From NCBI RefSeq assembly GCF_000340215.1, contig NW_006921532.1, positions 11,199,501 through 11,263,500 on the forward strand: a DNA stretch of 64,000 nucleotides. Direction: 5' to 3'. This stretch comes from Pseudocercospora fijiensis CIRAD86 (lineage: Eukaryota > Ascomycota > Dothideomycetes > Mycosphaerellales > Mycosphaerellaceae). Under the pieces are notes generated by a model. It ran no database searches, was not told the DNA's origin, and saw only the letters and a list, made by a program, of their open reading frames with translations. A program made the position numbers and the translations under genes. Every line of letters starts with the position of its first letter. Within the stretch, counting starts at the first letter, position 1. Below are positions 37,225 to 46,785 of this stretch, piece after piece.

Positions 37225-37232
37225 GCTCGTTT

Positions 37233-37310
37233 TAGACCTCGTAGTAGTTCGGGTTAGTTTAGTTTGGTTTGCTAAGCCGAAACTCTAGTTTAGTTTAGGT
37301 TGGTTTGCTA
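37233..37310 (+). repeat. Left end of the hAT element: TIR and subterminal repeat
   Basis: TIR at 37233-37252, then two direct copies of TAGTTTAG..TTGGTTTGCTAAG (near 37256 and 37288), typical of subterminal transposase-binding repeats. Confidence 0.8.
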
Positions 37311-37664
37311 AGCAACTATATAAGTAGCTGGTTCGAACTATACAATTTATCGGTTTTTAAGAAGTGTACGAATGTATACGTAGCTTCAAGCAAGCCCTTT
37401 GTAAGACTTAGCAGTATAGCCGGCAGCGTAGCCGGCATTTTTAGTCCTTAGTACTTATAGAATTTTCGAATCCTACTTAGGCTACGTAGTTGTATAAAGG
37501 TACTTATATAACCTTAAATCTATAGACAATTAGCTAAGGGCACTAACTAATCAAAAGCATATATACATATATACAAGGCATTATAGTTCAGTTCGGAAAC
37601 TATACTCCTTAGGTATGAATTTCATCCTTTCGTTTACGGTTCAATTCCCTAACTACTTAGTAGA

Positions 37665-38204
37665 ATGTCTTTATCTAGATCTAGGTAGAACTCATCGATT
37701 TCCCTAGAAGTCCTCCTCCTTAAGAAGTTTATACACTTTCCTACCGAACTATTCGACAATATTAAGTACTAGGATAGCTCCTCCCTCGGTATCGGCATAG
37801 TATATAAAAGAGCTATAAGGCAGCTCTATAGAACGTTCTACTAGTTACTCGCTATACTAAGGCCGAATGCTAGTTCGTTCCTTAGAACTCTTAGTTATTT
37901 AGGAGATATAAAGGGTAGGGCAGGTAGTAACTTCGTATTATATAAGGAGATAGAGGCTGCTATAGAAGAGGCCTTCAACCTATAGAAGATAGTAAAAGAT
38001 ATAGAGGCAGCTATAGGTCTAGGTACCTAGTTGAATTTTCAGTAGGTAGAGTATAAGGATATTTAGAGGGAGTATTAGGTAGAGTTGCGAAGGCAGGTAT
38101 ATAATATACTCTAGAAAACAGGGATAGTGCCTATAACTATAACTATTAGGCTCTTCAACCTTCCTTATTTTTCCCTGTTTTCTTTTTATAAAAATCTAAA
38201 CTAA
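37665..38204 (+). pseudogene. hAT cargo ORF 1 (plus strand), unknown protein
   Basis: From ATG 37665 (MSLSRSR) to TAA 38202-38204 the frame is interrupted only by TAG codons (about nine), each explained by CAG-to-TAG or TGG-to-TAG RIP changes. So it was an open frame of about 179 codons. Readable parts include LEVLLLKKFIHFPTELFDNI near the N-terminus, faintly like the start of an F-box, LGDIKGRAGSNFVLYKEIEA, and a charged helical part VELRRQVYNIL. I do not recognise the family. It is oriented opposite to the transposase. Confidence 0.5.
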
Positions 38205-38534
38205 TACAAATTAACCGGAATGTCTATCTTCTTTTAGTTCTTTGAAAAACCTAGCAGCGTAGCTAGTAGCGTAGCCGGTAGCGTAGCCGGCAGCGTAGCC
38301 GGCCTTTTTACTCCTTAGTACTAACGGGATTTTAGGAGACTTCTATTCCGTACGGCTAATAAAGCATACTATACTATATATATATACTTAGAGAGTATTT
38401 AGAGCGCGGTATACAGCGCCGTATAATAGCGGCTTATTTCGTATACAGAAAAGCTTATAGATAACACTACGAACATCCTTTCTACTAGAATATCTATCCT
38501 ACCTAGCACCGTCTCGAATATAGACATTCTAGCC

Positions 38535-39201
38535 TTTTAGAATCTAATCGAGTGCTTTGAAATCCTTATCTATAATCGTTATACGCTTCGCGTAAATAGC
38601 TATAAGGTTAACCGCTAAAATAGTATTAGTATAGTCCGAAAAGAGGTAGAAGAGAAATATACATTCGAAGATACGAACTAGGTAGGCTTCTATAGCCTCT
38701 TAAAGGGCGCCTATCGCGGAGGCTTAGAAGCGAAGGTCCGTTCTATAATCCTAGGCAATTTCGCGAATAAGTCGTTAGAAAGGAGTTTTGCGGATTAGGA
38801 GCTAAAAACTCTTCTAATACTACCGAATCTTACGGAGGGCTACGGCTAAAGAAGGATTAGTAAAAAGACAGTAAGAATGCCGGCTACGCTACCGGCTACG
38901 CTGCCGGCTACGCTGCCGGCTATAAATAGGACTTACTTCCTAGGCGCTATCGACGCTTCGTACGATTACTACTAGTAGTAGAAGCGCTAGTTATCGTCTT
39001 GCGTAGAGCCTTGCCCGCCGTTGTCTTACGCGGAGCCTTACTCGCGACGCCCTTTCTAGCACCGGAGCTAGCGGCAGTAGTAGTAGCCCTCTTACGTTAA
39101 TATACTATACTCGTTCTACTATTTCCGGTCTTATTGCGACCCGTAGAAGCACTAGGTCCCTTCTTACGAAGCGTCGTAACTTAGTTAAGTAGACTCGCTA
39201 T
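38535..39201 (-). pseudogene. Histone H3-like gene A, three exons, RIP-mutated
   Basis: Minus strand. Exon 1 39201-38937, intron 38936-38846 (GTAAGT...CTAATCCTTCTTTAG), exon 2 38845-38663, intron 38662-38615 (GTATAT...TACTAAT...TTTTAG), exon 3 from 38614 to about 38535. The joins restore H3 sequence exactly: RLG/TVALRKIR at the first (H3: PGTVALREIR) and IFE/S/VNLIAIYAKR at the second (H3: LFEDTNLCAIHAKR). The fold core is unmistakable: SFxLLIRKTPFxRLIREIA, then DYRTDLRF, ASAIGAL, EAIEAYLV, and TIIDKDFKAL, where x marks TAG in place of a Gln codon. The tail contains ARKGVASKAPRK and AGKALRK, echoing the H3 tail KAPRK and ARK motifs, but is longer than in canonical H3. The start is ATA, probably a RIP-changed ATG. 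Confidence 0.88.
38846..38936 (-). other. Intron 1 of H3-like gene A with four GCCGGC motif copies
   Basis: 91 bp with consensus donor GTAAGT and acceptor CTTTAG. Inside are four copies of TAGCCGG(C/T)AGCG-type units in tandem (38879-38925). Confidence 0.8.
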
Positions 39202-39410
39202 TATAAAAGTCGTCGAATTAAGGAAAAAAGTGCGTTACGAAGGTATACGAAGGCGCGCGCGGAGCGAGGGTATTGCGGAGGTAGTAGATATAGAGCGTAG
39301 AGGTATAGGTATCGATACGAAGGTTAAATATAGCGGTAGTATCGCGGTATCGCTAGGCAATAGAGTAAGCTTCGCGTAAGCCTATATTATAGTAACGTTA
39401 GAGCAAGGAA

Positions 39411-39466
39411 AGAAGGCAGGCACGGCTAAAAAAGGCAGGTACGGCTAAAAAAGGCAGGTACGGGAG
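39411..39466 (+). repeat. Three copies of a 19-bp unit GGCAGG(C/T)ACGGCTAAAAAA
   Basis: Tandem, in a non-coding part of the hAT element, followed by TAGCCGGCAT motifs (39480-39545). Confidence 0.8.
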
Positions 39467-39904
39467 ACTTTGAAATATAGCCGGCATATATAGCCGGCAT
39501 AGTAATAGGCGAAAGCCTCCTTTTAATAAATAGCCGGCGTAATAATAGTATCTTACTATAGTATAGATATTCTTTAGTAATGCCTTTACTAGCTATAGTA
39601 ATCTTATAAGTAACCTAGGCCTATTACTAGTAAATATAAGAAATATCAGGTAGGCTATACTAAACAAGCTAGTTATTTAGCAGGAAAAGGCCTACTACCG
39701 TCTCTATATACCGGCTACGAGTGCCGGCTATCGCTCTAAATTCAACTCCGCCCTATCTCGGAGGCTAAGGTACCGAGCGGAAACCCTATAGCTTATATTC
39801 ACTCGGTTATCGCGGAGCGCTTATAGGTAAGGTATTAGAAAAGAGTATAAAAAGTACGAGAAGAGTATCCTAGGATATAGGTCGTAAGTGAATAAGAGTA
39901 GTAC

Positions 39905-40229
39905 GCCTAGTTATTTATATAGTACGTTACTCTATACGACTAAGAGCCTATATTATCTTATGCTTCGCTTATAAGACCTCGACTCTACTAGTATACTATC
40001 GATCTCTTCCTCGGTCGCTAATACGCTGTCTTAATTCTTCTTCGAGTTGCCGGACTTAGTGCGTATCTATAGCTATATAATAGCGCTACGTATTATAGAG
40101 AATTTCTTATTAAAGTTTCTCTCTCGTAGGCTTGCTATCTACCTCGCAGTACAGAGGATCAAAGTGCTAATACTAAAGAATCTCCTTATAGTTAGGATGC
40201 TAGGGCTCCTTAGGACCTTTGTGTTTTAG
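39905..40229 (+). pseudogene. hAT cargo ORF 2 (plus strand), unknown protein
   Basis: A plus frame interrupted only by TAA codons (at sites that could have been CAA) and ending at TAG 40227-40229. The uninterrupted last 60 codons begin LPDLVRIYSYIIALRIIENF. Hydrophobic and basic; family not recognised. It lies between the two H3-like genes, on the other strand. Confidence 0.4.
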
Positions 40230-40493
40230 GTCTAAATAGAGACGTATTATAAACGTTCTATCGCCCTTTCGCTTACTACCCGCTAGGTCGCGATATGCGA
40301 AGAAACTAATCTAAATATAGCTCGTCTCTATAATAGTCGGGTAAATATAGAGCGCTAGGTTTCTACTTCGTACCTTAGATTTAGGGACGGCGCGGAGATG
40401 AAATTAGAAATGTAGCCGGCACCTATAGCCGGCAAAAGGATACGAAAATGGGCCTCCTCCTAGGTTAATCTAACGACTAAATACAATTTCCAA

Positions 40494-41117
40494 CTAATCC
40501 GCTATAAACCGACGCCGAATTTTAGCTAGAAGCTATATATCTTTATTTTAAAGAGTAACCCGCTTCGTATAGATAGCAAGGAGGTTTAAAAGCTTAAGCT
40601 CGGTTACGAGAAATGCCTCCGTAGCTTCCTAAAAAGCACTAATCGCCTTAGCCGTAAATCGTATACTAGACCGAAAATCTAATGTAATTTCTCGGACGAG
40701 TCGCTAGAAGGGAGTCTTAGGGATTAAAAGCTCGGTCCCTCTTTTGTTTTAGAAAAGCCGGATCTAGCGAAGGGCAATAGTACCTAGTTTAAAGCGCCGC
40801 TTCTTTATCGTCGAGTCCTGCCTTATTCCCTTTCTTTTAATAGAAAAATAACTTTTCTTCGCGATAGTCTTCGTCCGCCTACTCTTTTTAGCCTTCTCCT
40901 ATCTACCTATAGCCTTCTTGTTTTTCGGTACTATTTTCCGAGGAACCCCCTTCCTTCGTATATACTACGGAGAGCCTTGCTCTTCCGATATCTCGTTCTC
41001 GCTATAGTCTCCCTATACTTAGCTTGCTTTACCCTTGCCCTTTAGCCTCTAAAGATATTTATCTACGCGTTTAGGCGACGAGGGTATATCGGTAGGACCT
41101 AGAAAATTAATAAGCAT
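40494..41117 (-). pseudogene. Histone H3-like gene B, intronless, long basic tail
   Basis: Minus frame from ATG 41117 (MLINFLGPTD) to TAG 40494, 208 codons, interrupted only by TAG/TAA at former Gln or Trp codons. The C-terminal 100 residues are an H3 fold: RRFKLGTIALR, TELLIPKTPF, RLVREITLDFRSSIRF, AISAF, EATEAFLV, NLLAIYTKRVTL, NKDI and LLAKIRRRF. Compared with H3 it has a two-residue insert before TELL (NKRGTELL against KSTELL), loop 1 of normal length and many substitutions; it is clearly distinct from gene A. The tail of about 105 residues is Lys/Arg-rich (VPRKIVPKNKKAIG, KKSRRTKTIAKKS) with no ARKS motif. It might be a divergent H3 or a CenH3-like variant; the loop length speaks against a typical CenH3. 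Confidence 0.85.
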
Positions 41118-41599
41118 ATAATCGTAAGGAGATATTAATACTTCTTGCCTTCTAGAATAAATAGTCTTCTATTAAACCGCCTTATTAGGTTATCGTTAGA
41201 TTCGAATAAAGGATAGTAGCTTAAGGAAGGGGAGGTAGCCGGCTTAGGAAGGCCCGAAGAGCCGAATCCTTAAGGCATATTTGTCTTTAAGAATATAGGG
41301 AAAGGGAAGAAGGAGAGGAAGAGCGAATAGAGAATTAGAAATAGTCCGCAAGTAAGCGGGGTCGGTTGCTATAGCAACTAGTCTATTTAGGTCCTAGGAA
41401 TTCGAAATACATTTCGGATATATACCGGCTATATACGCCGGCTATATTACCTTATACGTAAACGCTTCGTCTCCTTAAAGCTGCTCTAAGCCTATATACG
41501 TTTCCGCTTCTCGACCCGGTATCGCCTTCTGCCTCCGCCCTCCTCCTCTTCGTTATCGCTAATTAGGGTTTCGCTTAGACTAAATTTCGCATTCTCTTC

Positions 41600-44500
41600 G
41601 CGCTCCTAGGTTTCTTCGATCTTAAGGTTTTCTAATTCCTCGATCAACTCCTTTAGTATAATCTTTAGTAACCTACCTTAGCGATTCTAGTAGAGGAGAT
41701 AGTATCGGAATACTATAATAGATTCGAAGGTAGTAGGCGAGTATATTCGATTAAAGCGGCCCTAGTAACGAGCGATACTAAAAGACCTCTTATAGCCTAT
41801 ACCTACGCTTAGGATAGCGAGGACGTCCCGAGCGACCGACGCTATCGTTAGAAACTTAGGCTCTAACCGCTGCTATATAGCGAGAATATCGTCTCCGAAT
41901 TCGTCTAGAAGACCGGTAAGATCTAGAGATTATTAGCCCTCTTTCCGAGCCTACGGGTTTATACTTACTCGCGCGCCGATAGAGATCGAACTCTTCTTTA
42001 TTTACTTTAGTAGTTACTTCCTCTTCTGCCTCTACTTCCTACCTACGAAACAGGTATAATGTCGGAGCCTTCTAAACCTTCTTTTTCTTTATAGGAGCTG
42101 TATTTAGACTAGTTTCTTTCCGACGCTCGTAGAACATCTTTTCTAGAATAGTTTAGTAATGCTTCGGCTATACCTCGTCCGCCTTCTATTCCGGCCTCTA
42201 CTAGTATATATCCTTTTCTACCGGGTTAAGCAAGTACGTAACGCTATAGATATCCTCGAACGAGTTAAAGGTAGCACTGTAATATTTATGCAACTTAGTA
42301 TAGGAGGTGTCTATAGCTTTCGTTATAGCTACTTTCTAGGGAACGCTCTTCTTAGCTAGCTTAGCTACGGTTTCCTCGAGCTCGTTAAAGAGCTAGTTAT
42401 AGTACGTAAAGACAAGGTAGATCGTCGGTCCTCGGGTTCTTCTAATCGTAGCAGTAACCTTCGCGTAATGCTTACTAATATCGACGAGATACTCTACTTA
42501 GCGCTATTCGGCGGCGGTAAGGCCGAGCTACTTAATACCCTCGGAACTCTAATAGATCTCGAGAGCGGTACGTAAAGTATATCCCCTCGTAACTATATAG
42601 AAAGTCGAATCGAACCGGGTCTTAACGTCTTAAGTAAAACGGAGTAGGCGCTAAGGAGGCCGCTTTTGCTATCGCTTATTCTATACGATATTCTAGGCAT
42701 CGGTTTTAGGGCGCTCGATTAGGTTCTTTTAAATAGCCTCGAATCGGTTATATCTCTATAAGCTCGAGTTCGTATATATTGCTAGACGACGAAGCTAGAG
42801 AAAAAGAGTTAGAACTATACTAGGTTACCGGCTATAGGTGCCGGCTATAGACAAAAGTTATACCTTATATAAAACGAGAGCGAGGCTCTCTGCCTTATCC
42901 CGTCTTATTACTATAATAAGTTTCTCGACTTTCGACTTTGCTTTATCCTTATCTAGGATCTTCTGTTAGTCGTCGTTTAATAGTGCAATTTTAAGCGTCT
43001 TAAAGAGGGCTCGGATCGCGATTTGAACTATATAAGCGAGGTAGGGAAACTTCTATAGGGATATAACTAGCAACGACGTCGGCTCCGATTTAATAGGGCT
43101 AGGGCTATTAATAGGCTCCTCTTTATCGTTATTATCGTGCGTATTATCGTACGTATCCGGAATCGTAGCGAGCTTAATATTCGGAAGATTAAGCTAGATT
43201 GTAGACCTTATAATCTCCTCTACGCACTCGACCCTATCGATACAATTAGTAATTTTAAAGACATATACGAGTGAATTGTATATATAACGCCTTATATAAT
43301 GTTCGATTATTACTAGCGTTGTCCGTAGTAATCGAGATTAGTTTCGTTGTTACGCTAACCCTGTCTATTACCGTATAGACAAGCTTCGCTATATCCTTAC
43401 TAGTATAGGAACCTAGAATTTTAGGGAATCCGATTATAAGTTCCTAGAGTTTCTAATCCGAATTAATAAAGTATAGTATAATCGAGAGGAAGGAGGCTCT
43501 TATAGTCCGGCTTAACTAGCTATCGATAGCAATAGCTACTCGGCGAGTATTACGGAGGATCTCCCGAATATCGTCTAACGCAGCCTCTTTATTCTTTTCG
43601 AATATAACACGCTAGGTTGTCGCGCCGAGAAATAGGGGAGGGTAGTTTGTAAGATATAGGTATATCTTCTATATAGACTCCCTTTCGTAGAAGTCTTCCG
43701 GAAGACCGTTTATAGCTAGCATTTCGTTTGCTAGTTGCTTAAAGTCTTCGAGGGAGAAATCGGTAGCCTTCAATCCTAGAGCTTCCTTAAGCGTAGCCTA
43801 TAATAATTAGCTAGATCTCTACGGTTGATTTAGGTAGCCGGAATCTATAGCCGGCAGCTATAGCCGGCAGCTATAGCCGGCATTTTAGAAGATATACCTC
43901 TTTTTAGAACGCTGTATCTATATTAACTCTCCTCTCTCCTTAAGATTCCCGATACTGTTTAGAATAGAGATAGTTCGTAGGCGATAAGTTCCTATCCCCT
44001 AGTTTCGGGTATTTTAAGATTAAACCGTAGAAGTTGTAGATAATTACTAGTTAACCTTTAAGTCGAGAAGTCGTATAACGGTGCAATATCCCCTCTATAA
44101 AGAACTTCTAGAATGTATCTGTTCGCTCCTTACTCCCCTATCGTATCGAGTACTTCCGGAGTTTATACTCCTTCGAACGTAAGTATAAAGGGAACTATAT
44201 CTTATAGACCTATTAATTAAACTGCTCTATATACTCGGGTTTCTAAAGATACGCCTAGCTAGCCTTTTCGAAGATTTCCGGGTTAATACTCGATATTCTT
44301 ATATCTCCGAACAACCTTCTGCTTAGACTCCGTAAAGGTAAGGACTAGGTAGTAGTACCCTATAATGAATTCCTACTACTAGGATTCGGAGAGGATAAAT
44401 CTAGCCCTAATCGTAGTCTAGGACTCGATAGGCTCGAAGGTAAGTATACGACCTCCTCTCGACGTTATCGCAATCTCGCTCGTATACTAGACTGTTTCGA

Positions 44501-44600
44501 CTATCGTCTCGTTATTACCCTTCCTAGTATAGCGCCTAGTGTATATACAATGTCGGTTAGCATATTTTGAGGTTTCGTACGGTAAGGTAAGGACTTAGGA
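41600..44600 (-). pseudogene. hAT transposase relic
   Basis: Minus-strand relic read through TAG stops. Catalytic-region motif TTKLISITTDNASNN (about 43300-43348), preceded by SFLSIILYFINSD and ELIIGFPKILGSY (about 43400-43480). Then come an IVQIAIRALFKTLKI block (about 42990-43030) and the C-terminal dimerisation region (about 41660-41920): RLEPKFLTIASVARDVLAIL, then SFSIARY and SPTTFESIIVFRYYLL. Two probable introns contain the GCCGGC motif (near 42825-42868 and 43830-43890). The N-terminus is uncertain; the BED finger expected there was not identified. The protein would have bound the TIRs and moved the whole 9.5-kb unit. Confidence 0.85.
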
Positions 44601-44689
44601 GTAGTAGATGTATACTAGTAGCTATAGAGAAACACCCTTTCTTTTATAGCATCGTATCGTTAGGAACAGCTAGGCAGTAAATAGCTAGC

Positions 44690-44815
44690 TACCTTTTTTT
44701 TTTGTTTCCTAGCTACCTAACTACTAGATTTTTTTTCCTAGCTACCCTAGCTAGCCTAACTACTAGAATTTCTTTCCTAGCTACCCTAACTACCTGAATT
44801 TTGCCTTCTATACGG
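44690..44815 (+). repeat. Short tandem repeat, CCTAGCTACC(CTAG)..TAACTAC units
   Basis: About three imperfect copies of a unit of roughly 35-45 bp, CCTAGCTACC..CTAACTACTAGA followed by a T-rich run, in a spacer of the hAT element upstream of the transposase. Confidence 0.6.
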
Positions 44816-44949
44816 CGGCTCTCTCCTACTAACGGAACCGAGCTACTATACCTAACGAATCTAAGCTCGTTTTCAGTCTTAATCTATCCTCTTTCGGTAT
44901 AAGACACTCGACAAGCAAATGCTTAGGCCGAGTCTAACTACGAAACCTA

Positions 44950-46215
44950 AGACTAACTAATAGCTCTATTAACTAATCCTAATCCTCGAACTCCTTCCGC
45001 TTCTTAGTAAAGACCTTAAAGAGCGCTCGAGCTTCTTCGGGTACCTACAGAGTAGTCGAGATAAAGCCGTATCGCTAAAATAGGTAATCCTTCGGAGGCT
45101 TATATAGAGATTCAGAGAATTCTAACGCTAACCTATCCTACTAGCAGCTTAGATTCCGGATACAAGCCCTCTCTACCTTAGTAAAGATTTTATATAGCAG
45201 TAGCACTCTGCCTTCGAGAAACGCTTTCTATTTAACTATTAGTATCTGCCGGCTACGAACGCCGGCTATATATGCCGAGTATAGAATAATTACCTATACC
45301 CCTTCCTCCTATAGTAATACTTCTACCGTCCCTAGATACCTAGCCCCGATCGCATTAATCGCAAGCTACTTTGCCTTTATAGACGCAAAGGCTTCGCTCT
45401 AATACTAATAAAGAAACTTCTACTCTATATTGAGGATATAAAGACGACTAGTCTCGATTCCAATCCTTACTAGCTTTTCGTAGTAGCTTTAACTATAATT
45501 TTCTAGATTAATAGGACTTATGCCTTAGCCCTTTACTAGTATCTCGTCTCTTTAACTATACTCGATCCACTCCTAGCGCTTATCGTCTATAGCGTTAGGC
45601 CCTAAGACTATACCTGTTACTAGATCGACGTATAGTATCTCCTCGCTTTTTTTAGTTCCTTTATTCGTAGCATTAAGCTCTATCGCGGCATCCTAAACTC
45701 TAGCATTATTGTTCTCGGCTATCTAAATATCTCCGTTACTATCGGTCGTATCGATAGAGGTAGCGGCTATAGGTCTAAATGCTATTAGTTAACGTATTAA
45801 AGAAAAATATGCCGGCTATAGCTACCGGCTACGGCTGCCGGCTATAGCTACTAGCTACGGCCGCTAGCTAGATTGACTTACGCTACTAGAACTTTACGCT
45901 CGAAAACTAGCCGCAATTCTTTCCTCCTCTTAGCCTTCTCTTAGGTTGTCTTCTTATTCCAACCTTCACTTTTTTCTATAGGCGCTAGCTATCGATAGAA
46001 TGCCTTATTCCGCGCCTTTCTTCTCTTATTTTTAGCTCTTTTATCCTTATCTATCTTGTCCTTTCTCTCGCGGTCTCGTACGGAATTCTTCTTCGTAGAG
46101 TACTTCTCTTTAGTCTTGCGCTTTTTAGTTAGACGCTTAGGCAAAATAAACTCGCGGTCTTTAGTTCTATCTTCTATTTAGCGCGCGGCGCGCTTCTCTC
46201 TTACTATTATAAAGG
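44950..46215 (-). pseudogene. hAT cargo ORF 3 (minus strand), unknown Lys-rich protein
   Basis: Starts near 46215 with a Lys/Arg-rich part (ILPKRLTKKRKTKEKYSTKK). It continues with KGTKKSEEILYVDLVTGIV, ISPINLENYS, SYYEKLVRIGIETSRLYIL and IKAKQLAINAIGARYLGTVE. After a gap containing the GCCGGC motif (about 45240-45290, probably an intron) it goes on to KAFLEGRVLLLYKIFTKVER and KPPKDYLF, with a charged end (EEARALFKVFTKKRKEFED). Stops are nearly all TAG. A second motif-bearing gap lies at about 45800-45870. Family not recognised; a nuclear, nucleic-acid-binding role is a guess from the basic N-terminus. Confidence 0.5.
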
Positions 46216-46329
46216 AAAGGGGCGGGGGCGCAGCGTATAGTAGTTATTATCGGTATAGGTATAGAGGAAGAAGTTAAAAGTGTAAGAATGTCGCGAAGCC
46301 CTAATTGTTGCCGCCTACGTAACGTTATA

Positions 46330-46640
46330 TAGGTAAGCTTTTGTAACTATAGCAACTACGCCCCGGCAATAGTAACTACGCCTTAGTAACGGCAACTACG
46401 CCCTAGCAACGGTAACTACGCCCTAGCAACGGTAATAAAGCGTAGTAAATACAACCTAGTAACTATTATAGCCGGCAATCGTAGCCGGCAGTCGAATAAG
46501 AGTGTCCTTATAGCAAAACTACGCCCTAGCAACGGCAACTACGCCCTAGCAACGGCAAAAGAGCGTAGTAAATGTAACAGAGTTACTATTATAGCCGGCA
46601 ATCGTAGCCGGCAGTCGAATAAGAGTGTCCTTATAGTAAA
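46330..46640. repeat. Right subterminal repeats of the hAT element
   Basis: Six or so copies of a 20-bp unit ACTACGCC(C/T)(C/T)AGCAACGG(C/T)A, embedded in two copies of a 123-bp unit that also holds TAGCCGGCAATCGTAGCCGG (46469 and 46592) and AATAAGAGTGTCCTTATAG. Confidence 0.85.
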
Positions 46641-46729
46641 ACTAATACAGTCTCTAGTTCAAACCAGGAATCTATATAGTTCGAAAAAACTAAACCGGAA
46701 CTAGGGAGCTAGTTCGCCGCTAAGAAACC

Positions 46730-46777
46730 AAACTATATACGTTTAGTAGTTCGGAAACCGAACTACTGCGGGGTCTA
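46730..46777 (-). repeat. Right end of the hAT element, TIR with palindromic extension
   Basis: The TIR (46758-46777) is preceded by an inverted copy of its own inner part: AGTAGTTCGG AAA CCGAACTACT (46746-46768). Confidence 0.85.
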
Positions 46778-46785
46778 GCTCGTTT

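What the first reader, a model, noticed from the sequence alone, without database searches (positions are those of the whole stretch)
37233..46777. A hAT transposon that carries two histone H3-like genes
Seen directly: matching TIRs, a perfect 8-bp target duplication, a hAT transposase relic, and between the ends two separate reading frames with unmistakable H3 core motifs (LLIRKTPF, RLIREIA, IAIYAKRIT in one; TELLIPKTPF, RLVREIT, LAIYTKRVT in the other). I know of no described hAT element with H3 cargo. Idea (inference): an element-encoded H3 with an altered tail could change nucleosomes on the element or at target sites and help it evade H3K9 methylation and silencing, or act in transposition itself. 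The RIP load shows the family was multicopy.
Basis: partly seen in the sequence, partly recalled or inferred. Interest (0 to 1): 0.93.

Follow-up and report, generated by a model that had tools for sequence, protein, structure and literature searches.

The report
Known histone-carrying transposon in banana fungus
The stretch is a dead, mutation-riddled copy of a jumping gene that carries two histone H3-like genes; this element has already been described from what is almost certainly the same fungus, and the new points are details of its histone genes.

Summary
Window 37233-46777 is a 9,545-bp hAT element with matching ends, an exact 8-bp target duplication, an uninterrupted empty site in 40 of 40 scored loci elsewhere, a broken transposase and two broken histone H3-like genes. 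It is not new. The genome (73.9 Mb, intact H3 gene on contig 6) fits Pseudocercospora fijiensis, where Dhillon et al. 2019 (PMC6710886) described this element: 9.5-9.9 kb, 20-bp TIR, 8-bp TSD, two H3-like genes, 471 elements, 784 H3 copies, all RIP-inactivated. A related case was printed in 2013 for Pyrenophora tritici-repentis. What I add: the published '16-residue insertion' is most simply a 48-nt spliceosomal intron; another intron splits tail from core in the same gene, so that copy is no intronless retrocopy; H3L-2 is about as far from H3L-1 (45% identity) as from host H3 (47%); both persist in a subfamily 77-83% identical; and transversions between subfamilies lean to third codon positions in the histone folds (24 of 45), as in the transposase (40 of 81). 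That hints at genes once under selection, but the signal is modest and uneven, and no function is shown.

The parts
37225..37232 (.). left target-site duplication GCTCGTTT
   Evidence: empty site
46778..46785 (.). right target-site duplication GCTCGTTT
   Evidence: empty site
37233..37252 (+). left 20-bp terminal inverted repeat
   Evidence: 934 genomic matches against 9 control matches
46758..46777 (-). right 20-bp terminal inverted repeat
38937..39201 (-). H3L-1 exon 1: long N-terminal tail with an H3-like stretch (GARKGVASKAPRKTTAGKALRKT)
   Evidence: translation; first codon reads ATA in the copies where it was found, so the start is inferred
38846..38936 (-). H3L-1 intron A (inferred): GTAAGT ... 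CTAAT ... TTTAG, holding a 12-bp GCCGGC minisatellite of variable length; same phase as host H3 intron 2 and one codon away
   Evidence: splice signals in 20 of 20 aligned copies and in subfamily B copy L037; host gene
38663..38845 (-). H3L-1 exon 2: histone fold, first part
   Evidence: Pfam Histone E 4.6e-16
38615..38662 (-). H3L-1 intron B (inferred), 48 nt: the published '16-AA insertion'
   Evidence: 48 nt in 20 of 20 copies; AG in 20, GT in 10 and AT (RIP-type) in 10; GTATGT in 5; CTAATAC branch-like site
38529..38614 (-). H3L-1 exon 3: end of histone fold
40494..41135 (-). H3L-2: intronless H3-like gene with a tail of about 115 residues before the fold
   Evidence: Pfam Histone E 3e-22; H3 chains in PDB E 1.4e-24; 21 copies
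39740..40418 (-). unnamed reading frame (orfC); 39742-40103 is tandemly duplicated in 14 of 20 fetched copies
   Evidence: no Pfam match; largely absent from subfamily B copy L037
41560..41960 (-). transposase C-terminus with hAT dimerisation-like segment
   Evidence: PF05699 E 0.1, below cut-off; part of the query that finds P0108
41972..43776 (-). transposase middle, in three pieces (41972-42640, 42870-43238, 43215-43776)
43900..44690 (-). probable N-terminal transposase region; reading frame unsettled
   Evidence: codon-position counts suggest a frame other than the one first tried
44850..45780 (-). unnamed reading frame (orfB)
   Evidence: no Pfam match

Best explanation
This is a RIP-killed copy of the published H3-carrying hAT DNA transposon of Pseudocercospora fijiensis. 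Shown here: exact ends, 8-bp TSD, empty site, hAT transposase remains, two H3-like genes, hundreds of ends in the genome, RIP damage. From knowledge of hAT elements: the transposase cut the element out at its TIRs and pasted it elsewhere, making 8-bp duplications; here it landed in another repeat. Inferred: the two H3 genes travelled with it as genes with their own introns or long tail, spread with each jump, and RIP at meiosis then filled all repeats with stops, so neither transposase nor histone is made now.
For: TSD and TIR; empty site 40 of 40 scored; 934 TIR hits against 9 control hits; H3L-2 in 18 of 18 full-length TIR-bounded elements; stops in 148 of the 150 H3 hits scored, at least 4 in each, the two open ones being the host H3 exon and the host CenH3 exon; RIP context; match of genome size, contig of the intact H3, element length, TIR, TSD and H3 pair with the 2019 description.
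Against: The species name is inferred; no tool named the genome. Only 150 of 772 H3 candidates were scored. I found no DUF659 match, which the paper reports, and the dimer domain is below Pfam's cut-off.
Confidence: 0.93

Rival explanations
1. The H3 genes were working genes of the element lineage, kept by selection through subfamily divergence (for example as variant histones acting on the element's chromatin), and died only when RIP caught up.
For: Both H3 genes and both introns persist in subfamily B, 8,599 bp with exact TSD. Transversions between A and B: third position 24 of 45 in the histone folds (p 0.005), 40 of 81 in the transposase (p 0.002); non-coding control frames p 0.29-0.83.
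Against: Tails show no such lean (10 of 44, p 0.95). Taken alone H3L-2 fold is 7 of 12 (p 0.07) and over 10 copies 9 of 19 (p 0.15). H3L-1 core has a higher transversion rate (12.2%) than the non-coding control (9.05%). orfB 25 of 59 (p 0.09). P-values are uncorrected for the several regions tried.
Confidence: 0.35
2. The H3 parts are inert passengers: a host H3 transcript was captured once, doubled and drifted (the published reading).
For: Published. A single clade of both H3 genes is not rejected (AU p 0.136), nor H3L-1 with ascomycete H3 (p 0.202). 373-bp copies without H3 moved with their own TSDs.
Against: H3L-1 has two intron-like gaps with splice signals, one beside the host intron site; H3L-2 is 45% identical to H3L-1 and 47% to host H3; third-position lean.
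Confidence: 0.5
3. The two H3 segments are independent insertions into the hAT, each with its own ends.
For: GCCGGCTA minisatellites in opposite orientation lie on both sides of the H3L-1 core and of H3L-2.
Against: The repeats also lie inside an intron, in the 373-bp copies and at many other places in the element; the same layout recurs in 20 fetched copies and in subfamily B. No empty version of either segment was seen, but none was systematically searched for.
Confidence: 0.03

Closest known systems
hAT elements with histone H3-like sequences in Pseudocercospora fijiensis (Dhillon et al. 2019, PMC6710886; parts 1-5 of 7 read)
   Same: Length 9.5-9.9 kb, 20-bp TIR, 8-bp TSD, two H3-like copies per full element, RIP damage, hundreds of copies, intact H3 elsewhere on scaffold 6.
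   Different: I read the 16-residue insertion as an intron, find a further intron, weak dimer-domain signal, minisatellites, a 373-bp derivative and a subfamily; I did not find DUF659.
H3L hAT of Pyrenophora tritici-repentis (Manning et al. 2013, PMC3538342; passages read)
   Same: hAT with TIRs, transposase and an H3-like gene that fits neither H3 nor CenH3 and has tail insertions; multicopy.
   Different: 5.6 and 2.3 kb, one H3L, mostly intact and with ESTs.
Repeat R25 of Stagonospora (Phaeosphaeria) nodorum (PMC3017866; passages read)
   Same: RIP-damaged repeat with a histone H3 region and weak DNA-transposon similarity.
   Different: Classed there as from an endogenous gene region; not compared here.

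Membership tests
hAT superfamily | 8-bp target-site duplication | tested here: met
   also L011, L017, L020, L022 and L037
hAT superfamily | short terminal inverted repeats | tested here: met
hAT superfamily | hAT transposase with C-terminal dimerisation domain | tested here: inconclusive
   Homology to a hAT protein E 1.3e-20; Pfam dimer domain E 0.1, below cut-off
P. fijiensis H3-carrying hAT family (2019) | full length 9.5-9.9 kb with TIR and TSD | tested here: met
   18 of 36 neighbouring TIR pairs in the first 100 listed hits are 9.3-10.0 kb
P. fijiensis H3-carrying hAT family (2019) | two H3-like copies per full element, one with a 16-residue insertion | tested here: met
   window and 19 further copies with both, 48 nt extra in one
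P. fijiensis H3-carrying hAT family (2019) | DUF659 in the transposase | tested here: not met
   not listed by Pfam for RIP-damaged pieces with X at stops; the paper found it by TransposonPSI annotation
P. fijiensis H3-carrying hAT family (2019) | sequence match to the published consensus | not tested
histone H3 | histone fold of H3 type | tested here: met
CenH3 | grouping with CenH3 proteins | tested here: inconclusive
   neither gene groups firmly with the CenH3 rows in a 33-row tree; host CenH3 itself was not in that tree

The most novel reading that the evidence does not exclude
A hAT lineage kept two different H3 variant genes, one intron-bearing with an H3-like lysine-rich tail and one with a long foreign tail, as selected parts of its own gene set for long enough to span subfamilies, probably to alter the nucleosomes on its DNA or at targets; RIP later killed all copies looked at.
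Probability: 0.28. Interest if true: 0.75.

Novelty: already known. Interest (0 to 1): 0.3.

Why it matters
The element and its H3 cargo are in print. If the H3 genes were selected rather than dragged along, this would be a transposon that makes its own histone variants, and the mostly intact Pyrenophora elements would make that testable. If they were inert, the case stays an example of gene capture and RIP. The intron reading also bears on how the capture happened.

Tried and rejected
Independent insertion of the H3 segments: rejected as unlikely (see rivals). P0001, a 164-residue metagenomic H3 variant, groups with H3L-2 (FastTree 0.97; 94/87, not starred), but AU tests reject none of: one clade of both H3 genes (p 0.136), H3L-1 with ascomycete H3 (0.202), H3L-2 with ascomycete H3 (0.098), all together (0.084); so separate origins are suggested, not shown. 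A search of viral contigs with P0001 found no relative. The H3L-1 protein search found canonical H3s at about 62-65% (the best 120 of 1226 listed) and no obvious transposon relative. The N-terminal transposase frame that I first assumed showed a lean to position 1 (18 of 30), so it is probably wrong. The first 2 kb of the window (GC 21-28%) was looked at with code 4 and is a 12-bp AT-rich repeat, not mitochondrial genes.
Full report
What is there. The element runs from 37233 to 46777 (9,545 bp). Its flanks carry GCTCGTTT on both sides and its 20-bp ends match at 18 of 20 positions. When the two flanks are joined with a single TSD, 40 of 40 scored loci (1067 candidates) match straight across the junction at 92-98% identity, so the borders are exact and the element sits in another high-copy repeat. 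RIP-type indices of the element (TA/AT 1.85; (CA+TG)/(AC+GT) 0.30) contrast with gene-rich parts of the window (0.52-0.53; 1.36-1.38).

Family size. The TIR pattern gave 462 + 472 matches against 5 + 4 for the control. Only the first 100 are listed; among them 36 plus/minus neighbours pair up, of which 18 are 9.3-10.0 kb apart, 4 are 373 bp, 1 is 5,194 bp and 13 are over 15 kb and probably not true pairs. All 18 full-length ones hold the H3L-2 fold: 14 through the list, 4 by direct reading. Three of the four 373-bp copies were read: they share about 84 bp of the left and 61-97 bp of the right end with the full element and no H3; two have an exact TSD and one matches at 7 of 8. I fetched 20 further loci, chosen by their H3L-2 hits, so their having H3L-2 is no independent evidence; all align along the element at about 93-97% identity, two only in part (L019, L028), and 14 of 20 have a 361-bp tandem duplication of window 39742-40103, which explains the 9.9-kb form. 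Four of them lay whole within the stretch fetched and all four have exact TSDs.

Prior art. The 2019 paper (PMC6710886; parts 1-5 of 7 read, passages) describes in P. fijiensis 784 H3-like copies in 471 hAT elements, 133 full-length ones of 9.5-9.9 kb, 20-bp TIR, 8-bp TSD, two H3-like copies in each full-length element, RIP, and the original H3 on scaffold 6. Here: 73.94 Mb, 772 first-look H3 candidates, an intact H3 on contig 6. A 2026 paper gives P. fijiensis 74 Mb and cites the 784 copies (PMC13041039, passages). The species is therefore inferred with high confidence. Manning et al. 2013 (PMC3538342, passages) had described a hAT with an H3-like gene in P. tritici-repentis. Literature searches.

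H3L-1. Its tail (39201-38937) and core are in different frames. Between them lie 91 nt with GTAAGT at one end and CTAATCCTTCTTTAG at the other, conserved in 20 of 20 aligned copies, with a 12-bp GCCGGC repeat of varying number inside (the lengths printed include one exon base). The host H3 has its second intron in the same phase, one codon away. Further on, a 48-nt stretch, in all 20 copies, begins GT in 10 and AT in 10 (the RIP-type change), reads GTATGT in 5, has CTAATAC and ends TTTTAG; taking it as an intron restores the H3 spacing exactly. Both sets of signals recur in the subfamily B copy, where intron B also begins AT. This is the stretch the paper calls a 16-AA insertion. The paper's retrocopy argument rests on absent introns; H3L-2 indeed has none at these places, but H3L-1 does not fit it. 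That these are spliced is inferred: no transcript was seen.

H3L-2. An intronless frame with a tail of about 115 residues before the fold. Identities: H3L-1 to host H3 61%, H3L-2 to host H3 47%, H3L-1 to H3L-2 45%. In trees H3L-1 comes out near canonical H3 and H3L-2 with the metagenomic P0001, but the alternatives tested are not rejected.

Constraint. Subfamily B (L037, 8,599 bp, TSD TTTACTTC) is 77-83% identical and has both H3 genes. Transversions, which RIP does not make, fall at third positions in 24 of 45 cases in the folds (p 0.005), 40 of 81 in the transposase (p 0.002), 10 of 44 in the tails (p 0.95), 25 of 59 in orfB (p 0.09), 6 of 30 in the N-terminal region in the frame assumed (p 0.96), and near one third in non-coding controls (p 0.29-0.83). 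H3L-1 core alone 17 of 33 (p 0.02), H3L-2 fold alone 7 of 12 (p 0.07), and over ten H3L-2 sequences 9 of 19 (p 0.15). Rates: H3L-2 fold 4.0%, transposase 4.3%, H3L-1 core 12.2%, control 9.05%. So the case for selection is fair for H3L-2 by rate, mixed for H3L-1, and none for the tails. P-values are not corrected for the number of regions.

Mechanism. The best-supported account is cut-and-paste movement by a hAT transposase with two H3 genes aboard, followed by RIP. What the histones did is open. By the alignment the fold keeps most positions common to H3 (for instance PFQRLVREI, with X at stops, LRF or IRF, and KRIT/KRVT), so a nucleosome-forming protein is plausible for the ancestral genes, but this is inference. 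The anti-silencing idea is possible and untested.

Verdict. Ordinary in the sense of already described, with a real correction to the published gene models and a testable, unproven hint of selection.

Noticed in passing
37417-46612, e.g. 38260-38302, 38879-38922, 43848-43881, 46469-46612: TAGCCGGC / GCCGGCTA repeats (12-13 bp units): 27 octamers inside the element against 1 in the rest of the window; they lie between genes and inside intron A, vary in number between copies and occur in the 373-bp copies. The 2019 paper reports no direct or inverted repeats.
   Followed up: partly
38615-38662 against L037: The putative 48-nt intron differs between subfamilies only by transitions, although neighbouring exon sequence has many transversions.
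   Followed up: no
H3L-1 tail, 38937-39201: Of 15 copies with a readable exon 1, 11 have a duplicated KAPRKTTAG module in the tail and 4 (window, L011, L019, L022) have one.
   Followed up: no
30000-53000: The target of the insertion is another RIP-damaged repeat with over 1000 candidate loci in the genome; not identified.
   Followed up: partly
1-2000: Very AT-rich (GC 21-28%) stretch made of a 12-bp TTAATTAATAGT-like repeat.
   Followed up: partly
P0001 (protein hit): A 164-residue metagenomic H3 variant on a 1,189-bp contig shares LLIPK, NLLAI and AK(I/L)RRRF with H3L-2; host organism unknown.
   Followed up: partly
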